Source: Dermacentor variabilis (lineage: Eukaryota; Arthropoda; Arachnida; Ixodida; Ixodidae). Taken from it: a stretch of DNA of 64,000 nucleotides. Position numbers and translations under genes: made by a program. The notes beneath the pieces were generated by a model. It saw only the letters and a list, made by a program, of their open reading frames with translations, was not told the origin of the DNA and searched no databases. Positions 1-64,000 of the stretch are shown piece by piece. The number at the start of each line of letters is the position of its first letter. The stretch's first letter is position 1. The stretch covers positions 26,890,662 through 26,954,661 of the forward strand of contig NW_027460291.1 in assembly GCF_050947875.1 (NCBI RefSeq), in the 5' to 3' direction.

Positions 1-98
1 AGCATTTCTCGGAGGGCAATTAGGGCTATAAGACAGCAAATTACTGTACTGATATGCTCTTTCTTTTAATGGGACCAAAATAAAATGACAGAAACATG
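1..98 (-). repeat. Initiator-tRNA array spacer, partial unit
   Basis: The window opens inside the spacer that separates tRNA units. It shares the block reading ctcggagggcaattagggct on the plus strand with every other spacer. A-rich plus-strand sequence (aaaataaaatga) just left of the tRNA gives T-runs on the minus strand that can act as Pol III terminators. Confidence 0.85.
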
Positions 99-170
99 TA
101 GCTGAGCGTGGTTTCGATCCACCGACCCCAGGGTTATGCGCCCAGCACGCTTCCGCTGCGCCACTCTGCT
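99..170 (-). tRNA. Initiator tRNA-Met (CAT), degenerate copy 1
   Basis: A 72-nt minus-strand tRNA with CAT anticodon and a D arm like canonical eukaryotic initiators. Changes in the 3' acceptor strand (gctgag instead of gcagag on plus) and in the variable/T-stem region (ccaccgacccc) make it probably a pseudogene. The 3' end of iM1 abuts its 5' end. Confidence 0.75.
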
Positions 171-230
171 GCTTTTTTTTTCTGTATTGCCATCTTGGAC
201 GCGTATTACAATGTCACATATGGTAAAACA

Positions 231-253
231 CTTCAGCCACACTTGGGCTGAGG
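231..253 (-). other. 3' UTR hairpin of iM1
   Basis: An 8-bp stem, CTTCAGCC with GGCTGAGG, and a 7-nt loop ACACTTG (plus strand) lie about 10 nt after the ORF2 stop. Equivalent hairpins with different stem sequence occur in iM2, iM3, iM4, iM7 and possibly iM9 and iM11. Confidence 0.6.
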
Positions 254-262
254 CGAGTGGTG

Positions 263-2262
263 CTAAAATCTTTTCATTTGTGCTAAATCATCAAGCAGTG
301 ATATCCCCTCTGGTGAATCAGTCTGAGCCCTGAAACATTCGCGCAGATAAACAACACTTTAGATCTACTTTTCACGTGTGCAACTTGTCTTTATGTCTGC
401 ATGTGGCACCTGCATTCGCGTTTTCCACAAACTGTGGAGGCCAAGAAGCATAATTAAATCGTAGGGCACTTCTTCACTTTCAATTGGTAAGTACCGGATG
501 CCGTAAGGATTTAAAGAGAGTTCCTTTTTAATCGTCCTCTGAAGGACATCCCAATAAAAAATTGGATACCAGCATTCTAGGAAAACATGTTCTACTGTCT
601 CGGGCTTCCTGCATAACACGCAGTTTGTTGTCCATGGTACGAATAGAACTTTATCTTGCAGCCAAGTTTTACCAGGCAGCGTACCGGAATGCAGTTAAAA
701 AAAGTTTTGGTCACAGGTCTAACGGGCATATTCTTAACTCTTAAAAATATCTTGCCCTGGGCCTCCAAAGTGTAGTGTCCGATAAATGGGTACCGGCAAC
801 ATCAGGTCAACCAGCCCTTTGTACAGCTTTTTCTTATTAACATAGGTATTCAGGGCTGAAGCGTACATCAAACATCTTGCACGAAAGAACAACCTCGCGC
901 AAGTATCCTGTCACAGCACCGCACATGTTATTACAGGAGACCATTCTTCCAGGGAGCAGTCCCTGTAGGCGCACTTGCATAACAGTTCATAGAAAGAGAT
1001 CACTTAGATCAAGCTAAAAACATAAATCGCGAGACCACTTGCCGCAAAAAAAAAAAAATGCGCCAGGCCAAGGCCTCCGCTTTTAACAGAAACAAACAGG
1101 TTAGTTCGGCTGGCTCTTTCCCAGGTCGACGCCCAAATAAAAACAGCAAAAACACGATGCATTTTTTGAATAGCTGTTCGTGTCGCACACAGCACTTTCA
1201 TGACACACCAGAGCTTCGAAATCAAAAAGACATTACAGATAGAGGCACGGGAAAACATTGATAGCTGTCTTCCTTGCCACGCGACCGCTTTTTTTTTCAT
1301 TCTCGAAGTTTCATCTTTCCAGTACGAGCTGGGATCCCGATAACTATCCAGTGGTACTCCTAGATACCGCGTTGGCAAGGTGGACCATCGAAACAGAGAA
1401 AAACAACCCGGTGTTACGTCCCATTCGCGATGCCAAAAACCGGAACTTTTTCCCCCAACTGATCTGACTTCCAGTCTGAGCGCTGAATTTTTCGACCGCA
1501 CTCGTGACTTTACAGATGCTCTGTCTATCAGCGCAAAACACCGCTATATCGTCAGCATACGCGATTACTTTCACGTGGGATGACTTCAATCTGTAACCGG
1601 AAATTCGGTCAGAACTGATAATTTCCAGGCACAGCGGCTCTAAATACACTGCGAAAAGCAAGGGGGAAAGCGGGCATCCGTGTCTTACTGAAGAACGTAC
1701 AGCAAGTTTGTCAGTGAGATCGCCATTAACTATAATGCGGGTTGTACAGTTCTTGTATGCAATTTTAACGCCCTCTAATATAACGTCGCCTAGTTTGGAA
1801 TGTTCAGGATGGAAAAATTTCGTGTGAGACGTAGTCAAAGGCTTTTGCCAAGTCGAGCTGCATCATTGCTATCTGACCGCCAACTCCATCAACACACTCA
1901 AATACGCTGCGTGCGACATGTATATTTGTGGCGATGCTACGGCCTTTAATTCCACAGGTCTGGTGAGACCCTACCGATTTCGTGATCACAGACTGCAGTC
2001 TTTTGGCTAGAGCCTTCATAAATACTTTGTAGTCGACCTTGGTCAGACTAATCGGTCGATATGACCCCACCAACAGTCGTTCTTCCGGATCATCAGACTT
2101 GCGAATTAGAACGATGTGGAAAGTATTGAAAGTCAATGGAACCTGTTTGCGTTCTTAAGCCTCGGATATTACATGGAGCATGCACTGTGCAACAGGAAGT
2201 TTAAATGTTTTATAAAAGGCCGCACTTGGCCCATCTGGCCCAGGAGCTTTCCCAGATGGCAG
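263..2262 (-). pseudogene. iM1 ORF2 fragment: reverse transcriptase to C-terminus
   Basis: This is the 3' two thirds of an ORF2. Reading leftwards from 2262 it starts at the GKAPGPDG block of the RT, then shows SYRPISL, the HQTCGIKGR block, QLDLAKAFD (first catalytic Asp), QGCPLSP and AYADDIAVF (catalytic pair intact). The thumb region with RYLGVPL follows, then a C-terminal zinc motif C-x2-C-x7-H-x4-C (CVLC...HVFLEC) and an LKRF-like end before a stop at 263-265. At least three frame changes between 2136 and 365 inactivate it. The endonuclease and ORF1 are absent because of 5' truncation. Confidence 0.85.
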
Positions 2263-2467
2263 TGCGCCACTCTGCTGCTCCTGCGTGCTACGTAAATTTG
2301 TTTATATTTGTAATAAACCAGAGTAGTCTTTCTTTTAGGGCGAGAAACACGAGCGCGTAGCACGAGAGAGCATTTCCAGGAGGGCAATTATGGCTATAAG
2401 ACACCAAATTACTGCGCTGATAAGCTCTTTCTGTTACATGGCAGAAAAATAAAATGAAGGAAACATG
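2263..2467 (-). repeat. Array spacer with 5' tRNA duplication
   Basis: It begins with the 16-bp copy of the tRNA start left by iM1 (2263-2278). The standard spacer follows, including tttata (TATAAA on minus) upstream of the duplicated tRNA start, a poly-T stretch, and the ctcgg/aggagggcaatt block. Confidence 0.85.
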
Positions 2468-2539
2468 TAGGAGAGCGTGGTTCCGATCCACGGACCTCTG
2501 GGTTATGGGTACAGCACGCTTCCGCCGCGCCACTCTGCT
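2468..2539 (-). tRNA. Initiator tRNA-Met (CAT), degenerate copy 2
   Basis: A 72-nt initiator-type tRNA. The anticodon CAT is present, but the GGG stretch of the anticodon stem is changed (plus gggtacag instead of gggcccag), and the acceptor and T loop also carry changes. Likely a pseudogene. The 3' end of iM2 is attached to its 5' end. Confidence 0.72.
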
Positions 2540-2647
2540 GCTTCTTTTTTTTTATATTTATTCGCTGAATGGTACATCACGTGCAAAGAACAACGGAAGA
2601 ACGAAATGCACTTACAGAAAAAAATGACACAGAGTAATGTTTAAAAA

Positions 2648-2670
2648 CGTCAAACACACTTTGTTTGGCG
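2648..2670 (-). other. 3' UTR hairpin of iM2
   Basis: Stem CGTCAAAC with GTTTGGCG (one T.G pair on the plus strand) and loop ACACTTT. The loop is almost the same as in iM1 and iM7 although the stem sequence differs. Confidence 0.55.
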
Positions 2671-2679
2671 TGCGATGAT

Positions 2680-5600
2680 TATAATGAAATGAGGTCATTC
2701 CGAACGGGTATCCATTACGGCTAATCTTCGTCTTCACAATATACAACCCTGGTGTGAGCTATACTTTCTATAAAGCATTCTCTGGCTGGCCGTGCGTTTA
2801 CATCCGCATGCCTCACCGCCATACGTGTCTTCGAAATTGCGTGCATACTCAACAACGTAAACATATCATACGGTATGTCACTTTCCCACTGAACCGGCAG
2901 AAAACGAATTCCGTATGGTGTTATAGGGAGGTCCTTCTTTAAAGTTCGCTGAATGATGTCCCAGTGGAACACGGCATCCCAACAGTAAAAAAAAAATGTG
3001 ATCAATACTTTCCGGCTTGCAGCACAAGAGGCAATTAGTACTCCACGGAACAAATAGGCCCTTTTCGTCTAGCCGTGGTTTCACGGGCAACATACCAATG
3101 TTTAGTTGAAAAAAAAAAAGGTTTTGGCTGATGGCCGTACTACCATTCTTTTGATTCTTTTGAAGACATCTTTTCCGGGCCCGATCGCATACAAGCTGCG
3201 ATACAAGGGTTCTGGCATCATTACGTCGATAAGATGTTTATACAGCCGTTTTTTCTTAACTTCGCACAAGTAATGCAGAGAAAAACGAAGGTTTAATATA
3301 CGAAAAGCCGATACTACTTCGCGCAGATAACCACGCATAAACATTCGCCCTGCGCGAGAAGTCGATATTATGAATTCAGGTAAATAACAGCATAATCTAA
3401 ATTGTAACATGGTGCGCGAGAATGGATGACTGATCTCGTAGAAAAATAAACCTCGACACAATCTGTCGTAAAGACAAATGGGCCAATCCCAGCCCACCAG
3501 CTTTAACTGATCGAAAAAGATTTGTACGACTCGTACGTTCCCATTGGGATCCCCCAAAAAGTGGCAAAGACTCTGTGTATCTTCTGAATGTTTAGCATAT
3601 TCATGCAAAGCACCTGAAGCACGTACCAAACTTTCGCTACTAACAAGATATTGCAGATTGTTGACCGGGCGAATATCGAGAAGTTTCTCCCTCCCCACTT
3701 AACAACTTTCTCTCTCAACATTTCTGTTTCGTCCTTCCAATATTCATCTGTATATTTATATCCCCCTAGTGGCACCCCGAGATATATTGTAGGCACGTCC
3801 NNNNNNNNNNNNNNNNNNNNNNNNNNNNNNNNNNNNNNNNNNNNNNNNNNNNNNNNNNNNNNNNNNNNNNNNNNNNNNNNNNNNNNNNNNNNNNNNNNNN
3901 NNNNNNNNNNNNNNNNNNNNNNNNNNNNNNNNNNNNNNNNNNNNNNNNNNNNNNNNNNNNNNNNNNNNNNNNNNNNNNNNNNNNNNNNNNNNNNNNNNNN
4001 AGAAAACGGCAATGTCATCAGCATAAGACAATAATTTGACCTCCGCCATCATAAGCTTAATACTACGTACTTTGTTATTCTGAATTACGAACAAAAGGGC
4101 TCTAAGTAAATAGCAACAATGAAGGAGAATTTGGACACCCCTGGCGAACGCTCCTGGGAATTTGAATACTTTCAGTGACTTATTTGTTAATGACAATGTA
4201 AGCCTCACAATTTTTATACATTTTCACACCTTCCTAAGATAACATTCCCGGCATTTACACGTTCCAATACTGTAAAGAGTACGTCCATGCACTACACGAT
4301 CGAAAGCCTTTTCGAGGTCTAATTGTAACATCGCGATTTTCCTGTCCCATGCATTACAGCCTTCGAGGATGCTCTTCGCTGTGTGAATGTTCGTTGCTAT
4401 TGTTCTGCCCATTATGCCGCACGTTTGGTGAGGCTCTACGATTAATTGTATTACAGTCTGCCGTAGCTTGGCTAGCCCCTTCATGAACACCTTATAATCT
4501 ACATTGGTGAGGCCTATAGGACGATAAGCACTCACCGATAAAGCTTTCACTGTGTCGTCGCTTTTGGGTATCAGTACAATGCGCGACCTTCTAAAGGATG
4601 GCGGCGCATCCTTTATTTCGTACGCTTCAGCGAAGAGTCGCGAAAGAGCCTTCGAGAGGTCATTTTTAAACGCCTTATAAAAAGCAGCACCAAGTCCGTC
4701 TGGACCCGGCATTTTCCCTTCACTTAGATCGTCTATTGCTCTTTCTATTTCGGTTAAACCAATTGGCATTTCAAGGCGTACTTTGGTTTCGTTATCTAAT
4801 GTAGGCATTAGTGTCAAAAATTCACCGCGTAAAGAGGCATCACTAAAGAGGCCGCTGCATCCAAGCAATCCTTTGTAATATTCGACAAACGCTTGTTGGA
4901 TCATCAATTTGTCCCTTGTAATCTCTTCACCGTACGTTATCAGCGTTATTTCCTTACGTGAAGCGTACCGCTTCTCCTCGCTCAAGGATCGTTTCGTCAG
5001 TGTTTCGCCGAGCCAGAGGTGTTCTGCGCGTGCGCGTATAACTGCGCCTCTGTATTTTTCCGTATCCATTATTTCAAGCTGATTATTTTTCTTAATTCTT
5101 CATTGAAAGTGAATGACTGCGCGCTCTCGAATGTCAACAAGAATTCCAACTGACACTGTAGTTCCCTTTCTTTTCTTTTTCATTCTGGTGCAAAATGGAA
5201 GATCTCTCGATAGCGCTAATTTTTACTTCTTCCTTAAACCGCTCCCATACATCAACAAATCTCCCCGACTCAAACAAGTGCATTTTTTCTATAAGTGCTT
5301 TCACATTGTCAACAAAGACTTTACCATTAAGTAATTTGTTGTTGAGTTTCCACAACTTCAACGAAAAACTTGACCCACTTTTTTTTTCACGCCTATTGAA
5401 AACATTACGACACTGTGGTCAGTAAACGCTACCGGTTTAACCTCATAACTGCTGCCAAGTGGTACAAGCACATCTGCCACGTATGCTCTGTCTAAACGGG
5501 GGTGGCAATCACGTTGGAAATGTGTATAGAAAGTGCCACTTCCGTTTTTCAGTACATTTCCGCCATCATCTAGGCCACACTCTCGCGTAATCCTAGATAA

Positions 5601-6255
5601 AAACAAAGCACTTTGATCCAGAACTGGCAATCCCTTGCTCCTATCTTCCTTCAGGCATACGGAGTTAAAATCACCGAGCAGTATCACTTTTCTTTCACAT
5701 TTAAATATGGTTCAACACTTGCGAAAAACCTAAGACGATCCTTAACGCTATTTGGTGCATATATACAAATGAGGCGCCATTTCAGAAACAAGAACAGAAA
5801 ATCACCAACGACAAATCGGCCGTCTTCACTAGAATAAACATATTCTTCCACAAGACTTAAAAAACTACGCAAAAAGAAATGGCACAGCGTCCAGAGGTGC
5901 CAAGGGAGTGACATACGCAAACCGTGTACAAATACCTAAAAGGTTCAACCATGCGATCCGTTTGCTCCTGACTTTCAACCTCGGTCTCCTGAACCGCTAT
6001 CAAGTCAAGGTCATACTCGTGGAAGAGGCGACTGACCTGATATTGCCTTCGTCTATACCGTAGTCCACGAACGTTTAATGTGGCAACCCGTAACGCGGTT
6101 TTAGATTGCGAAGTCCGCGTGCCAGTAGGAGCGGATCGCATGGTTCCTACCTCACACATAGTCCCGGCGTCGCCGGTGCAAAACCTTGAAGGACTTGCGG
6201 GTATACACGCACACGGCGTGCGCCCGCCACACACGTCACATGATGCTGAAGCCAT
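2680..6255 (-). pseudogene. iM2 ORF2: endonuclease and reverse transcriptase, frameshifted
   Basis: The reading begins with an ATG at 6255, about 60 codons upstream of the point where related copies start, and reaches the endonuclease core TLNVRG near 6075. Catalytic blocks are visible: QETE, LGDFNSV, LDRAYV and FTDHS (the usual SDH serine is Thr). The RT follows: GPDGLGAAFYK, SAYRPIGLTN, HQTCGIMGR, QLDLEKAFDRV, and SYADDIAVF at the edge of the N gap. The C-terminal zinc motif begins CLLCCKPESIDHIF but loses frame. Segments occupy different frames around 5920, 5687, 5361, 5069, 3698 and 3053. The left end is approximate. Confidence 0.8.
3801..4000. other. Assembly gap (200 N)
   Basis: Exactly 200 unknown bases inside the iM2 reverse transcriptase, just downstream in reading direction of the YADD motif. 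The round number suggests a placeholder rather than a measured gap, so the iM2 length is uncertain. Confidence 0.99.
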
Positions 6256-6469
6256 TCTAGCCGTGTCCTTTTCCGTCTATGGTTTTAAGGCCCTTGGTTG
6301 AAGCAGAGCCCTCGTTGCCTCGAGGGTGGCTTCCGCGGCCGTCGGGTGCCCGCTCCGATGTTGGGTGTGCGCTCAGTGTTGATTCGCCTGCCCGTGCCCA
6401 CCTTCGTCGCCGGCTCATCTCCTGCGCCTTGCCTGGTCGGCCGCCGTCACGAGCGACCTCTTCAATCGG

Positions 6470-7468
6470 TCACTTTGTAGTTGTGCCACTTACTCTTGCA
6501 CTCACGACATCCATGTCTTCTGGCTGGCTGTTTGACGCGGTGTTATCTTTTCCTTCGTCTTTGCTGTTTTCGTCCACTGGAGCATCGTTGACCGCTTTGG
6601 TTGGCTCGATACAATGCCCGACATCTTCCACGCGTCCCACATTCTTTTCTTTCTCCGTCGACCATTTAGAAAGGGGCGTGTACACGGGCTCCCCCATTCT
6701 GCTGCTGGCTGCTTCCTCTGCGACAACTTGGTCCATGATGTGCTCCGAGGCACGGTCGGCTGTAACCGTACCTGCCACCTTGGCATATGTCTGAGTGCTT
6801 TCGTTGTCTTCATGACCATAGCGCCTGCACTGACCGTACCTCGGTATTCGACAGCCACGTCTAATATGCCCCGTTCGGCGACACCGTAAGCACAGTGGCG
6901 CTCGGCCTGGCACAACCAGAAGTTTTGTCATAACACCCACTCGAAGCTGATGGGGTAGGTCCTTGAAAGTCGCTCCGGTTTTCAGTTCTAGTGCTACGGT
7001 ACGACTCGAAGTTCCTTTGTCCGCGATACCATGGACGCGCCATCGCTCCTGTGATACTTGTGTCACCTTCCCGTAGGCCGCAAACGCGGTGCGTACATCT
7101 TCATCCGGTACATAATGCAAAAGCCAATATAGCTTTAGCCGAACGTCTTGCTTATTTGGGTCGATAACGAGGCATCGCCTCTCCTTTATCTTGACGTCAC
7201 CAACCGCCAGCATCTTCTTCATTCCTTCTGCTGTGCTGAAGGTCACCGCCCATACGTGGTTCATCTGGAAAGCCCCCAAAGCAAGCACCTCGGGCAGTAT
7301 TCCCAGACGAACCATCGTGTCGCGGACATCTTCCACACGATAAGGTCTTGCCCTGATGTCTCCGTACAGAAAAACAGTATTCGTAACACACGCACCTTTA
7401 GGTAACTGTGGCAAAACGACTTCATATTCCTGGTTTTCTTCGGCAACGGTCCTGTTTCCACGACCCAT
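6470..7468 (-). CDS. iM2 ORF1, gag-like CCHC protein (start codon lost)
   Basis: An open frame of 332 codons. The N-terminal part contains the block ARPYRVEDVRD and MNHVWAVTF. A middle domain has LLHYVPDEDVRTAFAAYGK and ERWRVHGIADKGTSSR, spacing that recalls an RNA-binding fold. A CCHC knuckle CLRCRRTGHIRRGC follows, and then a second knuckle that has lost two Cys (RYGQC...NES). The tail is acidic and low complexity. The family start (MSSxGA...) reads ISSGGA here, so the family ATG has become ATT and the next Met lies about 11 codons later. It would bind the element RNA in a ribonucleoprotein; that role is inferred from gag-like ORF1 proteins. Confidence 0.75.
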   Translation of the reverse strand: MGRGNRTVAEENQEYEVVLPQLPKGACVTNTVFLYGDIRARPYRVEDVRDTMVRLGILPEVLALGAFQMNHVWAVTFSTAEGMKKMLAVGDVKIKERRCLVIDPNKQDVRLKLYWLLHYVPDEDVRTAFAAYGKVTQVSQERWRVHGIADKGTSSRTVALELKTGATFKDLPHQLRVGVMTKLLVVPGRAPLCLRCRRTGHIRRGCRIPRYGQCRRYGHEDNESTQTYAKVAGTVTADRASEHIMDQVVAEEAASSRMGEPVYTPLSKWSTEKEKNVGRVEDVGHCIEPTKAVNDAPVDENSKDEGKDNTASNSQPEDMDVVSARVSGTTTK

Positions 7469-7542
7469 ATGGGTCGCTGTATCCGCTCCACCGGAGCTAA
7501 TGGTAACACAACCTTGCGCTAGCGCGTCCGGCAGTGGAATCC

Positions 7543-12195: not shown

Positions 12196-12300
12196 AAAGC
12201 AAGTGCATTGTGTGAATGAAGATGTATTTTCTTCCATGTTGTAACCCCCCTGCTGTAACGCCTTTGGGCGCTGCGGGGCATCGATGAATAAAGAATAAAG

Positions 12301-53267: not shown

Positions 53268-53310
53268 GATAGCACGTCCGTACGCTGTGAAGGCCGGAAG
53301 TGGAACCTCC

Positions 53311-53590: not shown

Positions 53591-53784
53591 GCTCCTGTAA
53601 GCTATGTAAATTTATTATTATTTGTAATAAACGAGAGTAGTCTTTTTTTTTTTAAGGCGAAAAAGACGAGCACGTAGCACAAGAGAGAATTTTTCGGAGG
53701 GCAGTTAGGGCTATCAGACACGAAATTACTGCGCTGATATGCTCTTTCTGTTAAATGGGACCAAAATAAAATGAAGGAAACATG
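53591..53784 (-). repeat. Uninterrupted array spacer
   Basis: Standard spacer with a poly-T tract and 266-bp unit spacing. The TATA-like position reads tattattat here. Confidence 0.87.
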
Positions 53785-53856
53785 TAGCAGAGCGTGGTTC
53801 CGATCCACAGACCTCTGGGTTATGGGCCCAGCACGCTTCCGCTGCGCCACTCTGCT
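53785..53856 (-). tRNA. Initiator tRNA-Met (CAT), copy 15, near consensus
   Basis: Acceptor, D and anticodon arms match the array consensus exactly. The T loop has A58 changed to G (plus ggttccgatcc), and a T-stem pair becomes T.G. The iM11 3' end abuts it. Confidence 0.8.
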
Positions 53857-53930
53857 GTTTTTTTTGTTTATTAGATTTCTCAGGCTTGAAACAAAGCGAT
53901 ACAATCACAAATTCACAATACATAAGGTAA

Positions 53931-54516
53931 TTTGGCAGCAGCAGCGGCAGCAGCTTGATCGACCGACTCTGAACAATATTTCTGCTGCACTTTTTGCAGG
54001 GCCAACAGAAGTGTGCGTCGATGTGCCAGTGATCAACTTCTGAACTGCTGACAAGACGGAAGTCGACTTCGCCGACTCTGTCCGAGCAGTTCCTTGCATC
54101 TGCGCAGCATCCTTCAAGGCATCGTGACGTCAACGTGACGAAGCATGTCGCCGCCAAGGGTATAAGAAGACGGAACCGCCTTCGGGGAGGCATTTTGGCA
54201 GCAGCAGCGGCAGCAGCTTGATCGACCGACTCTGAACAATATTTCTGCTGCACTTTTTGCAGAAGTGTGCGTCGATGTGCCAGTGATCAACTTCTGAACT
54301 GCTGACAAGACGGAAGTCGACTTCGCCGACTCTGTCCGAGCAGTTCCTTGCATCTGCGCAGCATCCTTCAAGGCATCGTGACGTCAACGTGACGAAGCAT
54401 GTCGCCGCCAAGGGTATAAGAAGACGGAACCGCCTTCGGGGAGGCATTTTGGCAGCAGCAGCGGCAGCAGCTTGATCGACCGACTCTGAACAATATTTCT
54501 GCTGCACTTTTTGCAG
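53931..54516 (+). repeat. Tandem 254-263-bp promoter-like monomers
   Basis: Units start with tttggcagcagcagcggcag at 53931, 54194 and 54448. Units 1 and 2 are almost identical except for a 9-base difference (gggccaac region). They contain gggtataagaag, a TATA-like site, and gacgtcaacgtgacg. Unit 3 is partial and runs into the leader. Confidence 0.88.
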
Positions 54517-54674
54517 GTCAGTTGGAAATTTCCTTGGAATATTTTGCTTGAATTGGTTACCTTTGCTGCTGCTGCTGCCGCCGCTCTGTTTCTTTTTTTT
54601 TTTCTCATTGTGCGTTCCTAGGGAAAGGGAAGAGAGGGAAACGCGTGTGAACTTGTGCCTAGCCTTACCTTGTT

Positions 54675-55580
54675 ATGGCTCCGGAGGTGTGTCCTGCCTG
54701 CAATAAGGATTGTCAAGATGAGGAGGGTTTTGCGTGTGTGAGTTGTACTTACGTATATCACTTCGGAAAGTGTTCAGGAGTTGCAGAATCGACATTCAGG
54801 TCAAAAGGCGAGACATGGCGTAAAGCATGGTGCTGTCCAACATGTCGGACCGCAAGCACAAAGAGCCGCCAGAGTGGCAGGTCGAACTCTGAACAAGACA
54901 CTGATTATGCCAGCTTGATATTGAGCATAAATGACAAGCTGGCACAGCTGATGACACTAAAAAGCACGGTGGAAGGCATTGAACAGTCAGTGCAGACAAT
55001 GTCTGATCAGTACGACACAATTCTTAAGCACATTACCCGCCAAGATAAGGATATAGCCGAGCTAAGGAAACGAGTGGACATCATTGAGAGTAGGGAACGT
55101 TCACTTGACTCTGAGCAGATAGCAAAGGATATCAATGACCTGGAATGGCAAAGCAGGAAATTAAACCTTGAATTCCATGGCATTCCGGAAAGCAAGGATG
55201 AGGACCTGCTGTCGAAGCTTAATGCTGTAACGAGCAGGGTGAACCTTCCCGTGCTAACTGTGAATGATGTGGCCGCTGTGCATCGGCTGCCAGCGCCTAA
55301 ACATAAGGTCCCAGCAATTATTGTCCGATTCGCAAGACAGTCGCAGAAAGATCTGTTCTTGAGCAAGAAGGGAGAACTGAATAAACTGAAAACAAACTGC
55401 TTTATGCTCGAAAATTTGACAAAGAGGAACAAGGAGTTGCTCAAAGATGCAAAGAACTGGGCGAAAAACAGCAACTTTAAGTATGTGTGGCACAGAAATG
55501 GGAGAATTTTTGTGAGACAGCGAGACGGAACAAATGCAGTTCACATTGCTTGCACAGCGGATTTGAATAATATAGTATAG
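54675..55580 (+). CDS. CR1-like ORF1: zinc finger and coiled-coil RNA-binding protein
   Basis: An intact 301-codon frame. Residues 6-57 form a PHD-like zinc finger: CPAC, CVSC, YHFGKC and WCCPTC. A Ser/Arg-rich linker follows, then a predicted coiled coil with heptad-like spacing (about 85-150, LILSINDKLAQLM through IAELRKRVDIIES). The block LEWQSRKLNLEFHGIPES and VAAVHRLPAPKHKVPAIIVRF then match the RNA-recognition-like part of LINE ORF1 proteins. The C-terminus ends LNNIV and TAG. It probably trimerises and binds element RNA; this is inferred from family knowledge. ORF2 lies in the same frame, 45 nt downstream. Confidence 0.88.
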   Translation: MAPEVCPACNKDCQDEEGFACVSCTYVYHFGKCSGVAESTFRSKGETWRKAWCCPTCRTASTKSRQSGRSNSEQDTDYASLILSINDKLAQLMTLKSTVEGIEQSVQTMSDQYDTILKHITRQDKDIAELRKRVDIIESRERSLDSEQIAKDINDLEWQSRKLNLEFHGIPESKDEDLLSKLNAVTSRVNLPVLTVNDVAAVHRLPAPKHKVPAIIVRFARQSQKDLFLSKKGELNKLKTNCFMLENLTKRNKELLKDAKNWAKNSNFKYVWHRNGRIFVRQRDGTNAVHIACTADLNNIV

Positions 55581-55625
55581 TTTTCTTTCCTTGTGTCTCG
55601 TTTTGTTAGTTTTTCACAAGTTACA

Positions 55626-58511
55626 ATGGAAAGTGCACTTTCTTTGTTGCACATGGCGGTAAATGCTTCTTGCTGTGTAATGCCACGTGATTTTTTGGAT
55701 CTTTCTAGATCTCAGACAGTGCAATCTTTCAGCGTATTTCATTTAAATGCTCGGTCTGCGGTATCTAAAACAGCTGATCTCGAGTTGCTTTTTACGCAAC
55801 TGGGTTTTGCTTTTGATGTGGTCATGTTGACCGAAACCTGGTATGGTGAACATAGCAGTATATTCAAGCTTCCTTTGTATGATACATTTGTTTTAAATCG
55901 CACGAATAGTCGCGGTGGTGGCGTACTATTGATGGTAAAAAAGCACTTTCAGTGTGATGTGTTACCTGAATTTTCTGTCATAAACTCTGATTATGAAATT
56001 CTGTCCCTTGTTATCGAAAATAAGGTCGTGGCGGTCGTATATCGCCCTCCAAGCGGAAATTTGAAATCCTTCTTCGATTTTCTTGACCTTTTTTTGTCTT
56101 TCATAAGTGAAAACAAATACGATGTCATTTTAGGAGGTGATTTCAATATTAACCTCCTTGCAGATAACCCCACAAAAAAAGAATTCCAAAATCTATTAAA
56201 TTCTTTTGCCCTCTTAAACGTGATATGCGATCCTACACGTGTTACATTGCAGACTGAATCACTACTTGATCTACTTATAACCAATATGCACATGCCTATT
56301 CTGAAAGCAGGCGTAATAAATACTGATATCAGTGACCACCGCGGCGTTTTTATGTGCGTTCCGAAAAGCAAATTTCCTAATTCAAAAAAGATACCAAAGT
56401 TATGTCAAGATATGTCGACAAAAAACCTGAACAATTTCAAAGAGAAAGTTCGTAATCATGACTGGAGAAATGTTCTTGAGGAAACAAGTGCCGAAAAGGC
56501 TTATGTTTTGTTTTTAACGGCTTTTTTGTGTATATACAGCGAGTGCTTCCCTTATAAACATGCACAGGAACGAGGGAACATAAGGAAGCCATGGATCACA
56601 CCTGAATTGCTGAAGAAAATTTACAAAAAGGATAGGCTATACAAGAAGTTTGAAAAAACTCGAGACCCGGATAGGCTTAAGGCTTTTAAAATGTTCAGAA
56701 ATAAACTGACGGCGGATATACGCAGAGCACGTGATCAATATCTCTGTAACCAGTTCTGCTGCTCGATGAATAAGTCGGATGAATTATGGAGGAAATTAAA
56801 TGAGCTTCTAAACAGATCTACAGGCCCAAACCCAGTAACAAAAATTCATACTCAAGATAAAGAACTCACAGGCACTGATTTAGCAAACGCATTCAACAGA
56901 TACTTCACAGAGATAACTAGTGAATTCGTTGGTTCAAATACTCTTCATGTAAGAAACGAGAAGTCAATGTTCCTAACACCAACATCAGTATCAGAGGTCA
57001 TGTCTGTTTTCATGGGGCTAAAAAATAGCAAATGTTGTGACGCAGACGGAATTGTGATAAAACCGGTGAAGTTTGTGATAGGAGACATAGCAGAGTGCTT
57101 AGCTCACATATATAACCTTTGCTTATCTCAAGGAACATTTCCGGGGCAAATGCAACTCGCCAAAGTGAGCGTACTGCACAAAAAAGGTAGTAAGAATGAT
57201 TTTACAAATTTTCGACCAGTATCTATATTACCCGTTTTCTCAAAAGGCTTTGAAAAAATAGTTCTTACTAGAATGACAAATTTTAGCGAACAATGCAATA
57301 TCATTTATGGCGCGCAGTATGGCTTCCGGAAATATCGATCAACAGAAATGGCACTGTTAGAACAAAAAGAATTTATCCTGCAATCGCTTGAAGATAAAGA
57401 AGTAGCCCTTGGAATATACGTAGATTTCACGAAAGCTTTCGATTATTTAAATCACTCTATCCTGCTAAAGAAACTTGATATGTACGGATTCCGGGGGACG
57501 GTTCTGTCACTACTGACGTCCTACCTTAGTGAGCGCAAGCAGTACGTGTATTTAAATGGCTGCTCTTCTAATATATTACCAATTTCTGCCGGCGTACCTC
57601 AAGGGAGTATTCTGGGCCCATTTTTGTTTAACTTATATTTGAATGACATTGTTAACGTCGATCCTATGGTGAAATTTGTTATATATGCTGATGATGTGAC
57701 ACTGTTATTCTCTGCAGAAAGTACGGATGAGTTGATTCTGAGAGCAAACAGAACGCTTGTGAAATTAGACACATGGGCGCAACTTAACAAATTGAAAATA
57801 AACGTTAGTAAAACGAAGGCTGTCATATACCGTGCGAAAAACAAGAAAATTAACATTACCTCAGACATTAAGCTGCGAAACTCAAAAGTAGAACTAGTAA
57901 GCGCATTTAAAATACTTGGAGTGTATTTCAGCGAAAATATGACCTGGGACACTCATATCGACCACGTTGTGTCAAAACTGTCTCGCATCGTTGGATTGAC
58001 ATACGCCAACAGATACATTCTACCGTCAAAGGTTAAGCTTCTGCTGTACAATGCGTTATTCCACTCACATATGAAATATTGCCAATTAGTTTGGGGGAAC
58101 ACAACAAAAGGTAATTTGCAAAGAATCATGATATTACAGAAAAAAATGTTACGAAATATTGAAAACGTCCCCATGAGTCACCCTTCCCACCCTCTGTTCT
58201 TGAAGTACTGTGTAATGAAAATAGACGAGCTATATCCGCATTGCCTGTGTTCACGTTATAAGCTTGAAGTAAAAAATAACAGCTATTCCCTACTACGGTT
58301 GGCATCGCTTTCTAAAAGGACCACACCTTATGAGAATCGAAATACACAGCCATGGCTAATCAAAACGTGCAGAACCGGATACGGACAACAAATGGTAAAC
58401 AGAACCCTACCGCATTTGCTAAATTTCTGCCATAAAAACGGTTTCACTCCCGAAACAGCATCGAACCAGAAACTGAAATTGTTCTTCTGTGACAAAGCTC
58501 CTTTCCCATGA
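55626..58511 (+). CDS. CR1-like ORF2: endonuclease-reverse transcriptase, intact
   Basis: ATG at 55626 is the first in-frame ATG, and the frame is open back to the ORF1 stop. The endonuclease has all key blocks: FHLNARS, LTETWY, LGGDFNIN, LLDLLITN and ISDHRGV. The RT has CDADGIVIKPVK, KGSKNDFTNFRPVSIL, QYGFRKYRST, VDFTKAFDYL, GVPQGSILGPFLF and YADDVTLLF with both Asp. The thumb (FKILGVYF) and a C-terminal region with AYNALFHSHMKYC-like and KTCRTGYGQQMVNRT follow. About 961 codons with no frameshift or premature stop. Length is usual for CR1-group ORF2. It would nick DNA and reverse transcribe its own RNA. Confidence 0.92.
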   Translation: MESALSLLHMAVNASCCVMPRDFLDLSRSQTVQSFSVFHLNARSAVSKTADLELLFTQLGFAFDVVMLTETWYGEHSSIFKLPLYDTFVLNRTNSRGGGVLLMVKKHFQCDVLPEFSVINSDYEILSLVIENKVVAVVYRPPSGNLKSFFDFLDLFLSFISENKYDVILGGDFNINLLADNPTKKEFQNLLNSFALLNVICDPTRVTLQTESLLDLLITNMHMPILKAGVINTDISDHRGVFMCVPKSKFPNSKKIPKLCQDMSTKNLNNFKEKVRNHDWRNVLEETSAEKAYVLFLTAFLCIYSECFPYKHAQERGNIRKPWITPELLKKIYKKDRLYKKFEKTRDPDRLKAFKMFRNKLTADIRRARDQYLCNQFCCSMNKSDELWRKLNELLNRSTGPNPVTKIHTQDKELTGTDLANAFNRYFTEITSEFVGSNTLHVRNEKSMFLTPTSVSEVMSVFMGLKNSKCCDADGIVIKPVKFVIGDIAECLAHIYNLCLSQGTFPGQMQLAKVSVLHKKGSKNDFTNFRPVSILPVFSKGFEKIVLTRMTNFSEQCNIIYGAQYGFRKYRSTEMALLEQKEFILQSLEDKEVALGIYVDFTKAFDYLNHSILLKKLDMYGFRGTVLSLLTSYLSERKQYVYLNGCSSNILPISAGVPQGSILGPFLFNLYLNDIVNVDPMVKFVIYADDVTLLFSAESTDELILRANRTLVKLDTWAQLNKLKINVSKTKAVIYRAKNKKINITSDIKLRNSKVELVSAFKILGVYFSENMTWDTHIDHVVSKLSRIVGLTYANRYILPSKVKLLLYNALFHSHMKYCQLVWGNTTKGNLQRIMILQKKMLRNIENVPMSHPSHPLFLKYCVMKIDELYPHCLCSRYKLEVKNNSYSLLRLASLSKRTTPYENRNTQPWLIKTCRTGYGQQMVNRTLPHLLNFCHKNGFTPETASNQKLKLFFCDKAPFP

Positions 58512-58920
58512 CAGAATTTCATGTGGTTCTTTCATCTCTGCGCATGTACGCTACACGCATTGCAATGTACTGTTTCATACTACACCAATGTGTGCCGTTT
58601 TATTTTTTGTTTTTTCCTTCATTATGTAGCGCTTTTTACTTGCAGTTTTTATGTTTGTACGTTTTTGTTTAACATTGGTCTATCACGCAGTTAACAAACT
58701 TTTTATTTCTATAGTACCTTATTGTCAATGTTATCGACAAGTTATTGCTGCATTAGTATTTATTTGTTTGTGATTTTTATGTTGCCATGCAAAAAAGTGT
58801 TTCTGTTTCTTCTATTTTGTTCTCCGGGGAGCTGGGAACTAGTCAAGCTGACTTGTCAGCTTTTTTTCCCGCACTCCCTCACTTCATGAGTGAAATAAAG
58901 ATTATTATTATTATTATTAA
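58512..58920 (+). other. 3' UTR of the CR1-like LINE
   Basis: Non-coding, T-rich sequence with a gagctgggaactagtcaagc segment. It ends gtgaaataaagattattatt, an AATAAA signal directly before the ATT repeat. Confidence 0.75.
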
Positions 58921-58926
58921 TAAAAA

Positions 58927-58949
58927 CGCTTGCCCGCTTTGGGCAAGCG
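58927..58949 (-). other. Hairpin at the iM11 ORF2 end
   Basis: A perfect 9-bp stem CGCTTGCCC with GGGCAAGCG and loop GCTTT, placed where other iM elements have their 3' UTR hairpin. It lies next to the CR1-like tail, so assignment to iM11 rather than to the inserted LINE is an inference. Confidence 0.55.
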
Positions 58950-58954
58950 TGGGT

Positions 58955-61900
58955 ATTTCAGGTTGACAAGAGCATCTAATACAGGCATCCATGCTAGTGG
59001 ATCAATCTGTGCTTTATACATCTCACGAATAAACGCGATACTTTCTTTGAAGTACTCTCTGGCTGGCTGGGCGTGCAATTATGCATGATACACTGCCATT
59101 CTTGTTTTCCAGATGCTGTGAAGACATAAAACCATAAACATGCCATACGGCACCCCTTCATCATTATCTGTTGGGAGGAAGCGGATGCCATATGGGGTAA
59201 TCGGTAACTCTTTTTTTAAAGTACGTTGCAGTATGTCCCATAAGAAGGTGGCATCTACGCAATCAAGAAATATATGGTCGATAGTTTCTGGCTGCTTGCA
59301 CAATAACCAGTTTATCGTCCAAGGCGCAAAGATACCCTTCTGCTCTAACCACGGTTTAACGGGCAGAGTTCCGGTGTGCAAGTAAAAGAAGAACGTTTTC
59401 ACCGTGGACCGTACTGGCATCAGCTTCACCCTTTTCACTACGTCTTTGCCTGCTCCTGTTGACAACATGCTGCGATAGAGTGGTTCTGGCATACATACAT
59501 CAACAACGTCTTTGTGCAGTTTCTTTCGTGTAACATTGCTTAGATACTGTAATGAGAACGGTGCCGCGAGGAACTCGTAAGACCAGACGACTTCTCGCTG
59601 GAAGCCTCGTACTTTCGGCCAATCAACCCGACCAGACGAAACAATAAACGTTGGCATAACGTCACACAATCGCATTTGAATCACAGTACGTAGGAAAGCA
59701 TTGCTTTGCTCTCGCAGAAAGATAAATCTGGACACTACCTGTTTTAGAAACAAATGCGCCATGCCCAGTCCGTCACTTTTCACTGACCGGAATAAATTTG
59801 TACGGCTTGTACGTTCCCAAGTTGATCGCCATGTATACATTGCTAGCACCCTGTGGAGTCTTTGAATGCTTCCTCTCGTCGCACACAGTACTTGCAGAAC
59901 GTACGAAATCTTGGCTACAAGAAAATGGTTACATACTGTTGACCTTGCAAATATAGATAAGTCTCTCCCTCCAAATTTCGTCGATTATTCTTTTATTTCT
60001 TCCGCTTCATTTCTCCAATAATCACTAGTGTCTTTGTAGTGATTTAAAGGCACCCCGAGGTATTTCGTTGGCGAAACCGTCCACTGCCCGCTTTCAAAGA
60101 CGTCCGGGGTATCTTTCCATTACCCATGCCAAAAGCTCAAAGATTTGCTCCGGTTGATAACGCTTCCGGTCACTTTACAAAAACTCTTCGCCACACTGAT
60201 GGCATTCCTGACACTTTCTTGGTCAGAACAGAAAACTGCAACATCGTCAGCGTGCGTAAGTAGCTTAACCTCGCTTGTGGTCAACCTAAAACCTTTTATT
60301 GCACTCGATGACATGATTTTCAAACAGAAAGGCTCCAGGTACAGCGCGAAGAGTAAAGGAGACAAAGGGCATCCTTGCCTAACAGAGGACTTTATCTGGA
60401 AACTGGCAGTTAATGATTTATTAATTTTAATAATGCTAGAAATGTCTGCCTAACACATTTGTATACCTTCTGATAGGACCTTCCGGACATTGATGTGTTC
60501 TAGAATGTTGAAAACAACTTTATGCACAAATCTGTCGAATGCCTTCTCTAAATGCAGTTGTACTATGGCGACCTTCCCGCAGTACGCATCACAGCACTGC
60601 AGCACGGTTCTAGCCACGTGCATGTTTGTTACAACGGACCTTCCTTTTATGCCACAAGTCTGATGCGGCCCCACAAGCCTGGTTATAACACTTTGCAGTC
60701 TCCTACCCAAAACTTTAGCGAAGATCTTGTAGTCCGTGTTCGTTAGAGTTATCGGTCGATACGCTCGTACAGAGAGCAAGGCAGCTGGATCCTCTGTTTT
60801 TGGAAAAAGTACAACATGACTCTGCCTGAAAGAAGGAGGCAACTTCTTTGTTCTGTATGCCTCCTTTATTACGTTATGCAGGGCAACTGCTATCTCCGTT
60901 TTAAAAGCATTGTAGAATTCTTAGCCAAAACCATCAGGGCCTGGCGATTTCCCTGCACTCAATTCATCGATTGCCCCCTCAATTTCTGCAACGCTGATTG
61001 GTGCTTCGAGATTCGTTTAAACTTATGCTTCAAGTTTTGGCATGTCTCAAGAATTCGCTTTGAAAACCTTCCACAATCTATGGTTCGTGGCCAAGTAAAT
61101 CCCGATAATATTCAACAAATGCGCGACGTATTAGTTCCTCGTCTTGCACAACTTCATCTCTGTATATTATCGCTTTTATTTCGTTGCGCGACGCATAGCT
61201 TTTTTCATCTGATAGAACGCGTTTGGTCGGGGTTTCACCCATATACATTTTTTCCGCACGCGCTCGTACAACTGCGCCCCTGTACTTTTCTGTATTAATA
61301 ATTTCTAGTTTGCCTTTAATTTATTTTTTTTTTGTCTGGCAAAGTTACCCGGGGCTGTAGCTTCTGCATTCAAACAAAAGTCAAGCTGGCTTCGGAGCTC
61401 AGTTTCTTCTTTGTTTTGCTTCCTCCGCAAGCCCGGCTCTTTCGATGGCTGAGATTTTTGCGTTTTCCTTAAAATGTTTCCATGCCTCCGCATAACACTC
61501 CGGTTCATTTGCCAGTAGGTCTCCAATTTTTCCCTTTCGTTTCCTTAATATATACCTCATCGTTGAGGAGTTTAACATTGCATTTCCACAGGTGCCAGTT
61601 AAATTTCGCCGGTTTCCTCGGACCTAGCGCACACACAACCAAACTATGGTCACTAAATAAAAACGTCTTTATGTCATACTTATTGCAGACGGGTGCCAAA
61701 TCTGCCGAAACATAAATACGATCTAATCTAGCGTGGCTGACCCTCTGGTATTGGGTAAACCGAAGCAATGTGCCATTTGACAGGAAGCACCGTACATCTT
61801 CTAACAGGTGACATTCAGTCAGCGCATTTAGTACTGACACACTCGCATCTCGTATCGGTGCAACTCTTCTCCTGTCTTCTACTCTGGATACGCAATTAAA

Positions 61901-62347
61901 GTCCCCCACCATTATAATTGCCCTGTCATATTTCAGATAATGTTCAACACTTTCAAAAAACAATCTGCGCTCACTTGGTGCATTTGGGGCATGTAAACAA
62001 TCTATTCGGAACTTCTGGGCTTTCAACGTTATGTCACATACAATAAGTCGTCCAGTGTCACACGCGTGCACACTGTCAACAGATATGCCTGTGGAGTGCT
62101 ACAAGAACAGCGCACAACCACCGGCTGTACCTACTGCATGCGCAACGCATACATTGTAGTACGCCCTAAAAGGTTCAACCATGCGGTTTGTTCCTTCCTG
62201 ACTTTCGATCTTCGTTTCCTGCATGGCAATTACGTAGAATTCATTTTCCATAAAAAATCAACTCAGCTGTTATTGTTTTCTCCATATCGACAGGCCCCGC
62301 ACGTTAAGAGTGCCTACATAAAGAGGCGTTTGGAGAGTAATAGCCAT
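58955..62347 (-). pseudogene. iM11 ORF2: endonuclease and RT with HADD catalytic box
   Basis: ATG at 62347 opens with TLNVRGL. QETK, VGDFNCV, LDRIYVSA and FSDHSLV are all conserved, though stops interrupt the N-terminal part. The RT shows AYRPITLTNTD, HQTCGIKGR, QLHLEKAFDRF (the catalytic Asp of this block reads His), and THADDVAVF in place of YADD. The C-terminal zinc motif has Trp for its first Cys (WLLCKQPETIDHIFLDC). Frames change near 61526, 60842, 60450 and 60000. The end lies next to the nested LINE. Confidence 0.82.
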
Positions 62348-62413
62348 TTTTTTTATAAACACAAACCGCATAGTATCCCTTGCTTATCACAAGACGGCAA
62401 AACACTCACACTT

Positions 62414-63727
62414 TTATAGGAAAACCCAGTCGTTACAGCCATTTTGATTAGAATTTAGACTTCGCCGTGACGACGTCAACGCGCTGTCTTTCCGGTCCCT
62501 TCCGCTGATAGTGGCCGGTTGGAAAAAAGGAAGGCTCGACACCTCTTCACGTCGCCGGCGGGGCCGGCGGTTTCCGCTCGGGCCGTGGCTCGAGCGGTAT
62601 TTTCGGTGCGGGTTCAAATGGTGGGGTGTCGTTTTCACAGGCGGCTCATCCGTTGTATTCTCGTCGGTATTGTGCCCTTCTTTGCCGTCCTCATGGAGTC
62701 GTTTTGGTGCAGGGCTGCTGGTACTTGCCATAACGATGTCTGTAGTCTCAGGGCTTTGCTCGACACTCGCGCCAGGTGCAATGTATTGGCTCGCTGTAGT
62801 GCCCATCGCCAGTGTCTCTACAGCCTCTGTTGAAGCGATGGCTGTGTCTTCCGCAATAATGACTGCAGCTTTTTGCTTCACATGTGACACGTTTGTTGCA
62901 CCAATAGCTCGCGAGCTGTCTGCCACGGGGGTAGTTTCGGCCGCGTCTGCCTCGTCCATTAGATGTTCCGTCTACAGTTCATCGCTTGCTTTGTCTCCGG
63001 CCACGTTTGCGTGTGTTCGCACGCAGACGCTTTCATTGCGGCCATATCGCCGACATTTGGCACAACGCGGCACCCGGCAGTCTCACCTGATATGGCCTGT
63101 GGCAATGCACCTGAAGCATAGCAGTGGTCGTCCCGGCGCAACGAGTAGAGCCATGATTCCTGCAACCCGCAACTGATGGGGTAAATCTTCTAGAGTTACA
63201 GTAGGCTTGAGCTTTACACCAACCGTGCGCGTAGACGAGCCTTTGTCAGCTATTCTGTGCACTCGCCAGCGCTCCTTGTAGATATCGCTTGCTTTCTCGT
63301 ACGGTGCTAGAGCAGAGCGCAGTTGTTCGTCCGGAACATTATGTTGCACCCAGTAAAGCTTGGTGCGCACTTCTTGATTTTCGGGGTCAACCACAAGGCA
63401 CCGTTTCTCCTTGACCAGAACTTCCCAAATTTCTACCATCTTCTTCGTAGCTTCTGCACTTTTAAAAGTGACGGTCCAAACATGGTTCATCTGGAACGAC
63501 CCAAAAGCGACATCTTCAGGAAGCACTCCGAGATGAACCAACGTGTCCCGAAAGTCTTCTACACGGTAAGGCCGGGCTTTCAATTCCCCGTGAAGAAAAA
63601 CAGTATTCGCTACGGACGCACCTGTTGGCAGGGACAGCTGAATAACTTGATAGTCCAGGGTTTCATCAGCAAAAAAGCTGTTTCCGCGACCCTACTGGGC
63701 CGCTGATACCGCTGCGGCGGAGCACAT
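62414..63727 (-). pseudogene. iM11 ORF1, gag-like CCHC protein with stops
   Basis: ATG at 63727 opens MCSAAAVSAAQ followed by a stop, then GRGNSFFADETLDYQV. The block LSLPTGASVANTVFLHG and ARPYRVEDFRDTLVHL follow, with MNHVWTVTFKSAEA and VQHNVPDEQLRSALAPYEK. The first knuckle is CFRCIATGHIR with a stop at its end; the second reads CAKCRRYGRNESVC (the His position is Arg). The tail from 62959 is low complexity. Non-functional. Confidence 0.77.
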
Positions 63728-63770
63728 TCCACACGCGTCCGTTTGCTATCACGGCCGGAAGTAGAATCCG

Positions 63771-63969
63771 CTGCACCTCTCAGCTGCTGCTCCACCTCTG
63801 TGTGAAATTATTTGTATTTGTAATAAACGAGAGTAGCCTTTTTAAGGCGATAAACACGTGCGCGTAGCACATGAGAGCCCTTCTCCGAGTGCAATCATGG
63901 CTACAAGACATCAAATTACTGCGCTGATAAGCTCTTAACTTTCAGCGGGACCAAAATAAACGAAATATG
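63771..63969 (-). repeat. Array spacer with degenerate tRNA-start duplication
   Basis: Begins tgcacctctcagctgctgct, a decayed copy of the tRNA start, then a shortened spacer with typical gtaataaacgagagtag. Confidence 0.82.
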
Positions 63970-64000
63970 TAGCAGAGCATGGTTTCGATCCACTGACCTC
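63970..64000 (-). tRNA. Initiator tRNA-Met, partial copy 16 (window edge)
   Basis: The 3' half of another tRNA copy (acceptor, T arm with ggtttcgatcc on plus). It is cut by the window end before the anticodon. Confidence 0.7.

What the first reader, a model, noticed from the sequence alone, without database searches (positions are those of the whole stretch)
1..64000. Non-LTR elements inserted specifically into a tandem initiator-tRNA array
Ten of fifteen tRNA copies have an element fused to their 5' end, always in the tRNA orientation and within a few bases of the same position. At the 5' side of the elements the sequence GCAGCAGAGTGGCGCA, or a decayed copy of it, recurs. That is the last two 5'-flank bases plus tRNA nucleotides 1-14. 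Insertion thus occurs inside the tRNA, at the A box, and the duplication rebuilds a tRNA downstream. Known targeted LINEs use rRNA, U2, 5S, tRNA or telomeric sites; I cannot say whether an initiator-tRNA target in ticks has been described.
Basis: partly seen in the sequence, partly recalled or inferred. Interest (0 to 1): 0.95.

Follow-up and report, generated by a model that had tools for sequence, protein, structure and literature searches.

The report
Tick LINEs that insert into tRNA genes
A diverse and recently active group of tick jumping genes inserts itself at the very start of tRNA genes of many kinds, and of tRNA-like repeats, copying about 15 bases so that a complete tRNA gene remains downstream; such general tRNA-gene targeting is known from amoebae and yeasts, and I found no report of it for a LINE in an animal.

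Summary
The window (a 2.48-Gb tick genome, probably Dermacentor variabilis) is a decayed array of ~262-bp initiator-tRNA units. Ten of 15 tRNA starts directly follow a LINE A-tail, all in tRNA orientation; all ten readable 5' junctions carry the tRNA-start remnant. Nine of the eleven elements could be compared: 39-60% identical in reverse transcriptase, so one duplicated insertion is excluded. Relatives elsewhere, chosen only by protein match, abut tRNA genes of 15 isotypes (ARAGORN) or dispersed repeats with A/B-box-like sequences: of 110 readable copies, 60 tRNA genes, 41 such repeats, 9 neither. A control LINE gave 0 of 17. One family (20 copies, mean divergence 0.43%) shows 27 distinct sites, all but one at or near tRNA genes, mostly within 2 nt of nucleotide 1, with a median 15-bp duplication ending in the A box. 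The target is thus the tRNA gene start (Pol III internal promoter) in general. L1-group LINEs with general tRNA-gene targeting are known from social amoebae at other positions; ten searches of an open-access library showed none for an animal. How the site is found (Pol III factors or A-box DNA) is inferred, not shown.

The parts
53858..63768 (-). Element A (ORF1, ORF2), with a + strand CR1-like LINE nested in its 3' part; 3' tail abuts tRNA at 53856. Element starts here and below are approximate to a few bases
48222..53308 (-). Element B, full-length; tail abuts tRNA at 48219
43054..47936 (-). Element C, full-length
37821..42772 (-). Element D, full-length
32271..37284 (-). Element E, full-length: ORF1 36113-37252, EN 35209-35811, RT 33078-35168 (EN and RT in different frames)
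23501..31474 (-). Element F, interrupted by another LINE (about 24.9-28.6 kb)
14263..23224 (-). Elements G1 and G2, fused (RT of G1 runs into ORF1 of G2); an RTE-like piece lies at the joint, flanked by TTTAAAGTT
12739..13983 (-). Element H, 5'-truncated, same target junctions
2542..7541 (-). Element J, full-length
173..2262 (-). Element K, 5'-truncated, same target junctions
53327..53857 (-). Two tandem initiator-tRNA units
47955..48221 (-). initiator-tRNA unit (anticodon mutated)
42789..43053 (-). initiator-tRNA unit (decayed)
37308..37820 (-). Two tandem initiator-tRNA units
31491..32270 (-). Three tandem initiator-tRNA units; the second and third show the uninterrupted target
23239..23500 (-). 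initiator-tRNA unit
14000..14262 (-). initiator-tRNA unit
12298..12738 (-). Two initiator-tRNA units; the second is cut in its spacer by other repeats and resumes at 7643-7556
2279..2541 (-). initiator-tRNA unit
3..172 (-). initiator-tRNA unit, runs off the window
63798..64000 (-). partial unit at the window edge, 5' side of element A

Best explanation
A lineage of L1-group LINEs (two ORFs, AP-type endonuclease, reverse transcriptase, short A-tail) in a tick genome uses tRNA genes in general, and repeats with A- and B-box-like sequences, as its landing site. Shown by sequence: the A-tail is joined at or within a few bases of tRNA nucleotide 1, in tRNA orientation; the tRNA bases 1 to ~15, ending in the A box, are present on both sides, so a complete tRNA gene start remains on the 3' side. 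Inferred from other LINEs: target-primed reverse transcription, with the antisense strand nicked first at nt 1 and the sense strand about 15 nt further. Inferred with about 0.6 confidence: the element protein is brought there by the Pol III factors sitting on the A and B boxes (TFIIIC/TFIIIB), rather than by reading the target bases itself. The initiator-tRNA array of the window is one large old target among many.
For: Of 119 copies taken by protein hit alone, 110 had a readable 3' flank: 60 tRNA genes (34 of 35 in family 2, 9 of 16 in E, 8 of 19 in B, 0 of 20 in '65', 9 of 20 in '60'), 38 SINE1, 3 SINE2, 9 none. Of the 60, ARAGORN itself in the flank, of 15 isotypes, and 12 rest on similarity to called tRNAs; no flank of 110 has a tRNA call on the opposite strand. 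Control CR1-like LINE: 0 of 17. Family 2: 20 copies, mean divergence 0.43%; 32 of 40 copies with a duplication of at least 6 bp, reducing to 27 distinct sites; at least 11 bp shared in 31 of 34 pairs, against 24 of 1881 mismatched pairs. At SINE1, 8 of 8 paired junctions share 9-15 bp, and target variants are repeated on both sides in L174/L145, L176/L151 and L179/L119; 19 of 20 SINE1 cores sampled have the uninterrupted 5' part. No base motif at the nick: every column from -12 to +24 is below 0.61 bits. Near-misses still lie beside a tRNA gene: 11 nt upstream of tRNA-Arg (L028), 32 nt upstream of tRNA-Met (L055), 10 nt inside tRNA-Ser (L022). RT and EN match LINE-1 ORF2p.
Against: Nine of 110 readable flanks matched neither tRNA nor the two repeats; at least L029 (inside another LINE), L135, L139 and L171 look like plain misses. 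The '65' group has no tRNA gene at all, only SINE1 (17 of 20). Twelve of the 60 tRNA calls are by similarity only; two of these are weak (L016, 74% over 61 columns; L045, 80% over 60), and Rfam finds no tRNA in L012 and L016 even at E up to 1. Rfam does not call SINE1 a tRNA either, so its Pol III activity is assumed from box-like sequences. A strict A+B-box pattern is met by only 27 of 35 family-2 and 9 of 16 E flanks (0 of 17 control, 128 of 20,000 random window 90-mers). The A box is common to the main targets, so direct reading of it by the protein is not excluded. Only one genome was examined.
Confidence: 0.88

Rival explanations
1. Initiator-tRNA-specific LINE: the endonuclease recognises the initiator-tRNA 5' sequence only.
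For: All ten element tails of the window abut initiator tRNA. Of the 60 tRNA-flanked copies sampled elsewhere, 5 have tRNA-Met; four of these are at the initiator (L037, L056, L057, L157), one (L055) lies upstream of another tRNA-Met.
Against: The same families, with near-identical copies, sit at many other isotypes.
Confidence: 0.01
2. Direct DNA recognition: the endonuclease or another element protein reads the A box itself, as R1, TRAS or Tx1 elements are thought to read their targets (recalled); no Pol III factor is needed.
For: The duplication ends in the A box in most sites; an A box is common to tRNA genes, SINE1 and SINE2.
Against: The nick floats: the A box starts at flank base 7-10 in 23 of 35 family-2 flanks, at 5-6 in the five SINE1 flanks of family E, at 19 in L028, and none is found in the first 40 nt of L055. 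No fixed motif at the cut.
Confidence: 0.35
3. Segmental duplication: one ancestral insertion was copied with its array unit.
For: Some copies clearly share sites: L005/L006 have the same flanks; ten hits lie ~4.9 kb apart on C11.
Against: Nine window elements compared are 39-60% aa identical while complete units are 86-90% identical to a reference unit; two are 5'-truncated at different points; family 2 has 27 distinct sites with their own duplications.
Confidence: 0.02
4. The tRNA is part of the element (carried along), not the target.
For: A tRNA or tRNA-like sequence follows the tail in 101 of 110 readable copies.
Against: The tRNA differs between near-identical copies, fits the local array, and its first ~15 nt are repeated upstream of the element.
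Confidence: 0.01

Closest known systems
Dictyostelid tRNA-targeting LINEs TRE5, TRE3, NLTR-A, NLTR-B (L1 group; PMC5911963 passages, PMC5006619 passages, PMC5391098 abstract)
   Same: APE-type L1-group LINEs that insert near tRNA genes in general (a tagged TRE5-A reached 384 of 405 tRNA genes); TRE5-A also uses A/B-box loci without other tRNA context; NLTR-A inserts 2-6 bp upstream of the mature tRNA, almost the position seen here.
   Different: TRE5 sits 40-54 bp upstream in opposite orientation, TRE3 40-150 bp downstream, NLTR-B 39-64 bp upstream; NLTR-A has an RNase H domain. The tick elements join at about nt 1, duplicate ~15 bp into the A box, lie in tRNA orientation, and are in an animal.
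NeSL-1_TV (tRNA-Pro), LIN15_SM (tRNA-Arg), LIN25_SM (tRNA-Glu) (PMC4640811, passages)
   Same: Non-LTR retrotransposons specific for tRNA genes; the LIN families are from planaria.
   Different: Reported in an analysis of elements related to the NeSL clade (restriction-like endonuclease), each for one isotype; the tick elements have an AP-type endonuclease and use many isotypes.
Dewa (zebrafish, spacer of tRNA-Leu; PMC3706591, one passage; that it is a LINE is recalled)
   Same: Animal element tied to tRNA genes.
   Different: One isotype, spacer rather than gene start.
Dada DNA transposons (PMC3706591, PMC8869645, passages)
   Same: Several lineages insert at tRNA nt 8-13, inside the A box.
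   Different: DDE transposase, 6-7 bp duplication, mostly one tRNA type per family.
Ty3 (yeast LTR element; PMC5911963 passages)
   Same: Inserts at tRNA genes by way of Pol III factors (TFIIIB, TFIIIC).
   Different: LTR element with integrase; both orientations.

Membership tests
L1-group APE LINE | RT closest to LINE-1 ORF2p among solved structures | tested here: met
   E 4.9e-59 over residues 14-665; R2 1.2e-24 at best, over the RT core; 6.3e-74 for relative P0001
L1-group APE LINE | AP-type endonuclease N-terminal to RT | tested here: met
   Pfam Exo_endo_phos in E; endonuclease ORF of D matches L1 EN; the aligned N, E, D-x-N and SDH residues of P0001 agree with L1 (that these are catalytic is recalled)
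L1-group APE LINE | A-tail, target-site duplication, 5' truncation | tested here: met
   copies H and K
Tx1 clade | RT tree groups with Tx1, Keno, Mutsu etc. | not tested
   No reference Tx1 sequences at hand; placement only suspected from memory
TRE5 (Dictyostelium) | 40-54 bp upstream of the tRNA, opposite orientation | tested here: not met
   About nt 1, same orientation
NLTR-A (D. purpureum) | 2-6 bp upstream of the mature tRNA | tested here: not met
   Family 2: 31 of 34 tRNA sites from 2 nt upstream to 4 nt inside (with L044 placed); close but not the same
NLTR-A (D. purpureum) | RNase H domain after RT | tested here: inconclusive
   zf-RVT (PF13966) and no RNase H among the Pfam domains listed for the 120 relatives shown; no sensitive search made
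Single-gene-specific LINE (R1/R2 type) | One target gene and sequence | tested here: not met
   15 isotypes by ARAGORN plus two repeats
Dada DNA transposon | DDE transposase, 6-7 bp duplication | tested here: not met
   RT/EN proteins, median 15 bp
Pol III-factor-guided element (works like TRE5-A/Ty3) | Dependence on the B box, TFIIIC or TFIIIB | not testable with these tools
   needs experiment

The most novel reading that the evidence does not exclude
An animal counterpart of the Dictyostelium TRE elements: a many-family, recently active LINE lineage that treats the Pol III internal promoter as a universal landing pad, joining at the first base of a tRNA gene, leaving a complete tRNA gene behind, and spreading through the tandem tRNA arrays and A/B-box repeats of tick genomes. 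It would be guided by TFIIIC or TFIIIB, and its endonuclease would have little sequence preference of its own.
Probability: 0.55. Interest if true: 0.88.

Novelty: new variant of a known kind. Interest (0 to 1): 0.8.

Why it matters
General tRNA-gene targeting by LINEs is documented, in the papers I saw, for social amoebae, and is explained there as an adaptation to compact genomes; here it occurs in a 2.5-Gb animal genome, which questions that explanation. The site repairs itself: each hit leaves a tRNA gene start, so the same place can be hit again, and arrays can host many families. The families give natural variants for asking how an AP endonuclease with little base preference is steered to one position, which bears on safe-site gene delivery. 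It may also help explain tandem tRNA arrays and decayed tRNA genes in tick genomes.

Tried and rejected
Initiator-only specificity, segmental duplication and carried-along tRNA were tested and rejected (see rivals). Scans of viral contigs for RT and for the 3' junction, and of genome contigs for the 5' junction, found no relative; plasmids gave no match to the tRNA unit. I could not place the lineage in the Tx1 clade for want of reference sequences. Of the window families only E and B were followed genome-wide; the search for C did not complete, a G1 probe did not complete, and A, D, F, G2, H, J and K were not tried. A count of all tRNA genes (RF00005) did not complete, so no chance rate per genome is given; the control LINE, mismatched pairs and random 90-mers serve instead. 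The strict A+B-box pattern undercounts tRNA genes with divergent B boxes. In one search, offsets of 76-79 (L005, L006, L044) are artefacts of doubled reference records; ARAGORN puts these at nt 1 or 1 nt off. L045 is counted as a tRNA gene (80% over 60 columns), but its isotype label Phe is not used. In script 113 the label 'empty' was given to 18 of 20, wrongly to L199, which follows an A-rich, tail-like stretch, and 'other' to L188 and L194, which differ from the empty form by two and one bases next to the core; I recounted by reading the flanks.
Full report
What is in the window. On the minus strand the window is an array of ~262-bp units, each with an initiator-tRNA gene. There are fifteen tRNA starts, and one more unit is cut by the edge. 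Ten of the fifteen directly follow the A-tail of a LINE; five follow spacer. Eleven elements can be told apart (A-F, G1, G2, H, J, K; G1 and G2 are fused), giving ten 5' and ten 3' junctions. A further break, in a spacer at 12298/7643, is due to other repeats.

Anatomy. The elements carry ORF1 and ORF2. In E, ORF2 holds an AP-type endonuclease and a reverse transcriptase. RT hits LINE-1 ORF2p at 4.9e-59 over residues 14-665, R2 only over the RT core. ORF1 of E has two CCHC-like knuckles whose Cys and His are invariant among the 30 aligned sequences, and a folded part whose best Foldseek matches are the two RRMs of hnRNP A1 (E 4.4e-6, but TM-scores only 0.24/0.44 and model mean pLDDT 59). The eight window elements with a complete 5' end begin TTCCACTTCCGG or close to it; tails are AATAAAG(A)n or variants. 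H and K are 5'-truncated but keep the same target junctions, as expected of target-primed reverse transcription (inference from other LINEs).

Independence. Pairwise RT identity among the nine window elements with enough alignable sequence (not F and H) is 39-60%, while complete units are 86-90% identical to a reference unit. One insertion copied with its unit cannot give this. In the window the tRNA parts diverge about as much as the spacers (10.4% against 11.5%, 105 pairs of units): this segment is an old, decayed piece of array, so the tRNAs 'rebuilt' here have not been kept as genes.

Genome-wide test. The host assembly (G000, 2.48 Gb, 605 contigs) was searched with the RT of E: 65 scored rows out of 96,281 first-look candidates, so a capped sample; 41 rows are a family about 60% identical to E ('family 2') and 24 belong to E's own family, E included. 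I took 40 of the 41 family-2 copies and 19 other E copies. Fetched by RT match alone, they are not at initiator tRNA in general: their A-tails abut Ser, Gly, Met, Ile, Asp, Leu, Arg, Thr, Asn, Ala, Glu, Pro, Val and other tRNA genes. Rfam finds tRNA genes on both sides of the element in 18 of the 20 loci L021-L040, often in tandem. With a 3'-proximal ORF of window element B, 150 rows were scored and I took 60: 20 B-like, 20 about 65% and 20 about 60-63% identical ('65', '60').

Tally. 119 copies: 8 withheld, 1 without 3' end, 110 readable. tRNA gene 60 (family 2: 34 of 35; E: 9 of 16; B: 8 of 19; '65': 0 of 20; '60': 9 of 20). SINE1 38 (E 5, B 9, '65' 17, '60' 7). SINE2 3. None 9 (L029; L002, L014; L135, L139, L146; L153, L158, L171). 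ARAGORN calls a tRNA in the flank itself in 48 of the 60, of 15 isotypes (Ala, Arg, Asn, Asp, Glu, Gly, Ile, Leu, Lys, Met, Phe, Pro, Ser, Thr, Trp); the other 12 are truncated, shifted, intron-bearing or decayed genes placed by similarity, two of them weakly (L016, L045); no flank has a call on the opposite strand. Copies are not all independent: L005/L006 share flanks, L147/L148 are neighbours in a row of ten hits ~4.9 kb apart, and 32 family-2 rows with a duplication reduce to 27 distinct sites. Control: 17 copies of the CR1-like LINE nested in element A, out of 51 scored rows and chosen for a reachable 3' end, have neither tRNA nor A+B box.

SINE1 and SINE2 are my labels. SINE1 contains TGGCTCAGTGG and GGTTCGATTCC, which fit A and B boxes as I recall them; Rfam does not call it a tRNA. 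Its 41-base core occurs 1807 times exactly (872 forward, 935 reverse; reversed control 0). Of 20 cores from the start of that list, 19 have the usual uninterrupted 5' part and 1 (L199) follows an A-rich, tail-like stretch. It is thus an independent repeat into which the LINEs insert.

Junctions. Family 2: 31 of 34 pairs share at least 11 bp between the two sides, against 24 of 1881 pairs of copies at different targets; the other three share 3, 6 and 9 bp. Median duplication over the 27 distinct sites is 15 bp (6-19). In 31 of 34 tRNA sites the joint lies from 2 nt upstream of nt 1 to 4 nt inside (L044); the others are L022 (10 nt inside), L028 (11 nt upstream) and L055 (32 nt upstream of a tRNA-Met). 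L029 lies inside another LINE. No column from -12 to +24 around the joint reaches 0.61 bits. At SINE1, 8 of 8 checked pairs share 9-15 bp, and three carry a target variant on both sides: each copy was inserted into its own target.

Age. Twenty family-2 elements differ by 0.43% on average (0.08-0.73%), and 32 of the 41 rows show an open frame of 1133 aa, 30 of them without a stop inside, so this family moved recently. Among the 120 listed of 375 ORF1 relatives, named ones are from hard ticks of the genera Ixodes, Dermacentor, Rhipicephalus, Amblyomma and Haemaphysalis, and a soft-tick protein is related in ORF2 (P0117, among 120 listed of 2128); DNA flanks in those species could not be read. 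Five contig lengths of G000 equal those listed for Dermacentor variabilis proteins, hence the likely species.

Mechanism. Shown: site, orientation, duplication and the variety of targets. Inferred: target-primed reverse transcription with the antisense strand cut first. Inferred with less confidence: guidance by Pol III factors. For it speak the lack of a motif at the joint, the floating position, the near-misses beside tRNA genes, and the A/B-box promoter as the common feature. Against it: the A box itself could be read, SINE1 activity is untested, and a few insertions lie at no such site.

Literature. Ten searches of the open-access library (listings) gave no animal LINE with general tRNA-gene targeting. 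The 2018 review on Pol III targeting (PMC5911963, passages) has TRE5, TRE3, NLTR-A and NLTR-B as the non-LTR entries of the table part I saw, all from social amoebae; 'animal' and 'arthropod' do not occur in it. PMC4640811 (passages) names isotype-specific tRNA elements, and PMC3706591 (passages) Dewa. The D. variabilis genome paper (PMC12341941, passages) has 'tRNA' once, for mitochondria. Subscription papers and Repbase reports were not searched, so a prior description there is possible.

Noticed in passing
L021-L040: Many tRNA isotypes lie in tandem arrays in this genome (for example Asn ~151 bp, Thr ~158 bp, Gly ~143 bp, Arg ~226 bp periods).
   Followed up: partly
window 54675-58511 (+): CR1-like LINE nested in element A; six other copies elsewhere are listed at 100% (rounded) amino-acid identity over residues 2-972, so it is very young.
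   Followed up: partly
window 19095-20158: RTE-like LINE fragment inside the fused element pair G1/G2, flanked on both sides by TTTAAAGTT.
   Followed up: no
window 24913-28606: Another LINE with an RNase H-like match (RVT_3) nested in element F.
   Followed up: no
G000:C11:103736970-103781773: Ten hits of the '65' family in a head-to-tail row at ~4.9 kb spacing; repeated insertion at one restored site or unequal exchange.
   Followed up: no
P0117 (Ornithodoros turicata): A predicted protein that runs from ORF2 into an ORF1-like stretch of this lineage, as if two elements stood in a row in a soft tick (by reading).
   Followed up: no
5' ends of elements A-F, G1 and J: Eight window elements with complete 5' ends, though very diverged, share TTCYAC-[TA][TG]-CCGG at their start; it resembles an ETS-factor site (recalled), perhaps an internal promoter.
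   Followed up: no
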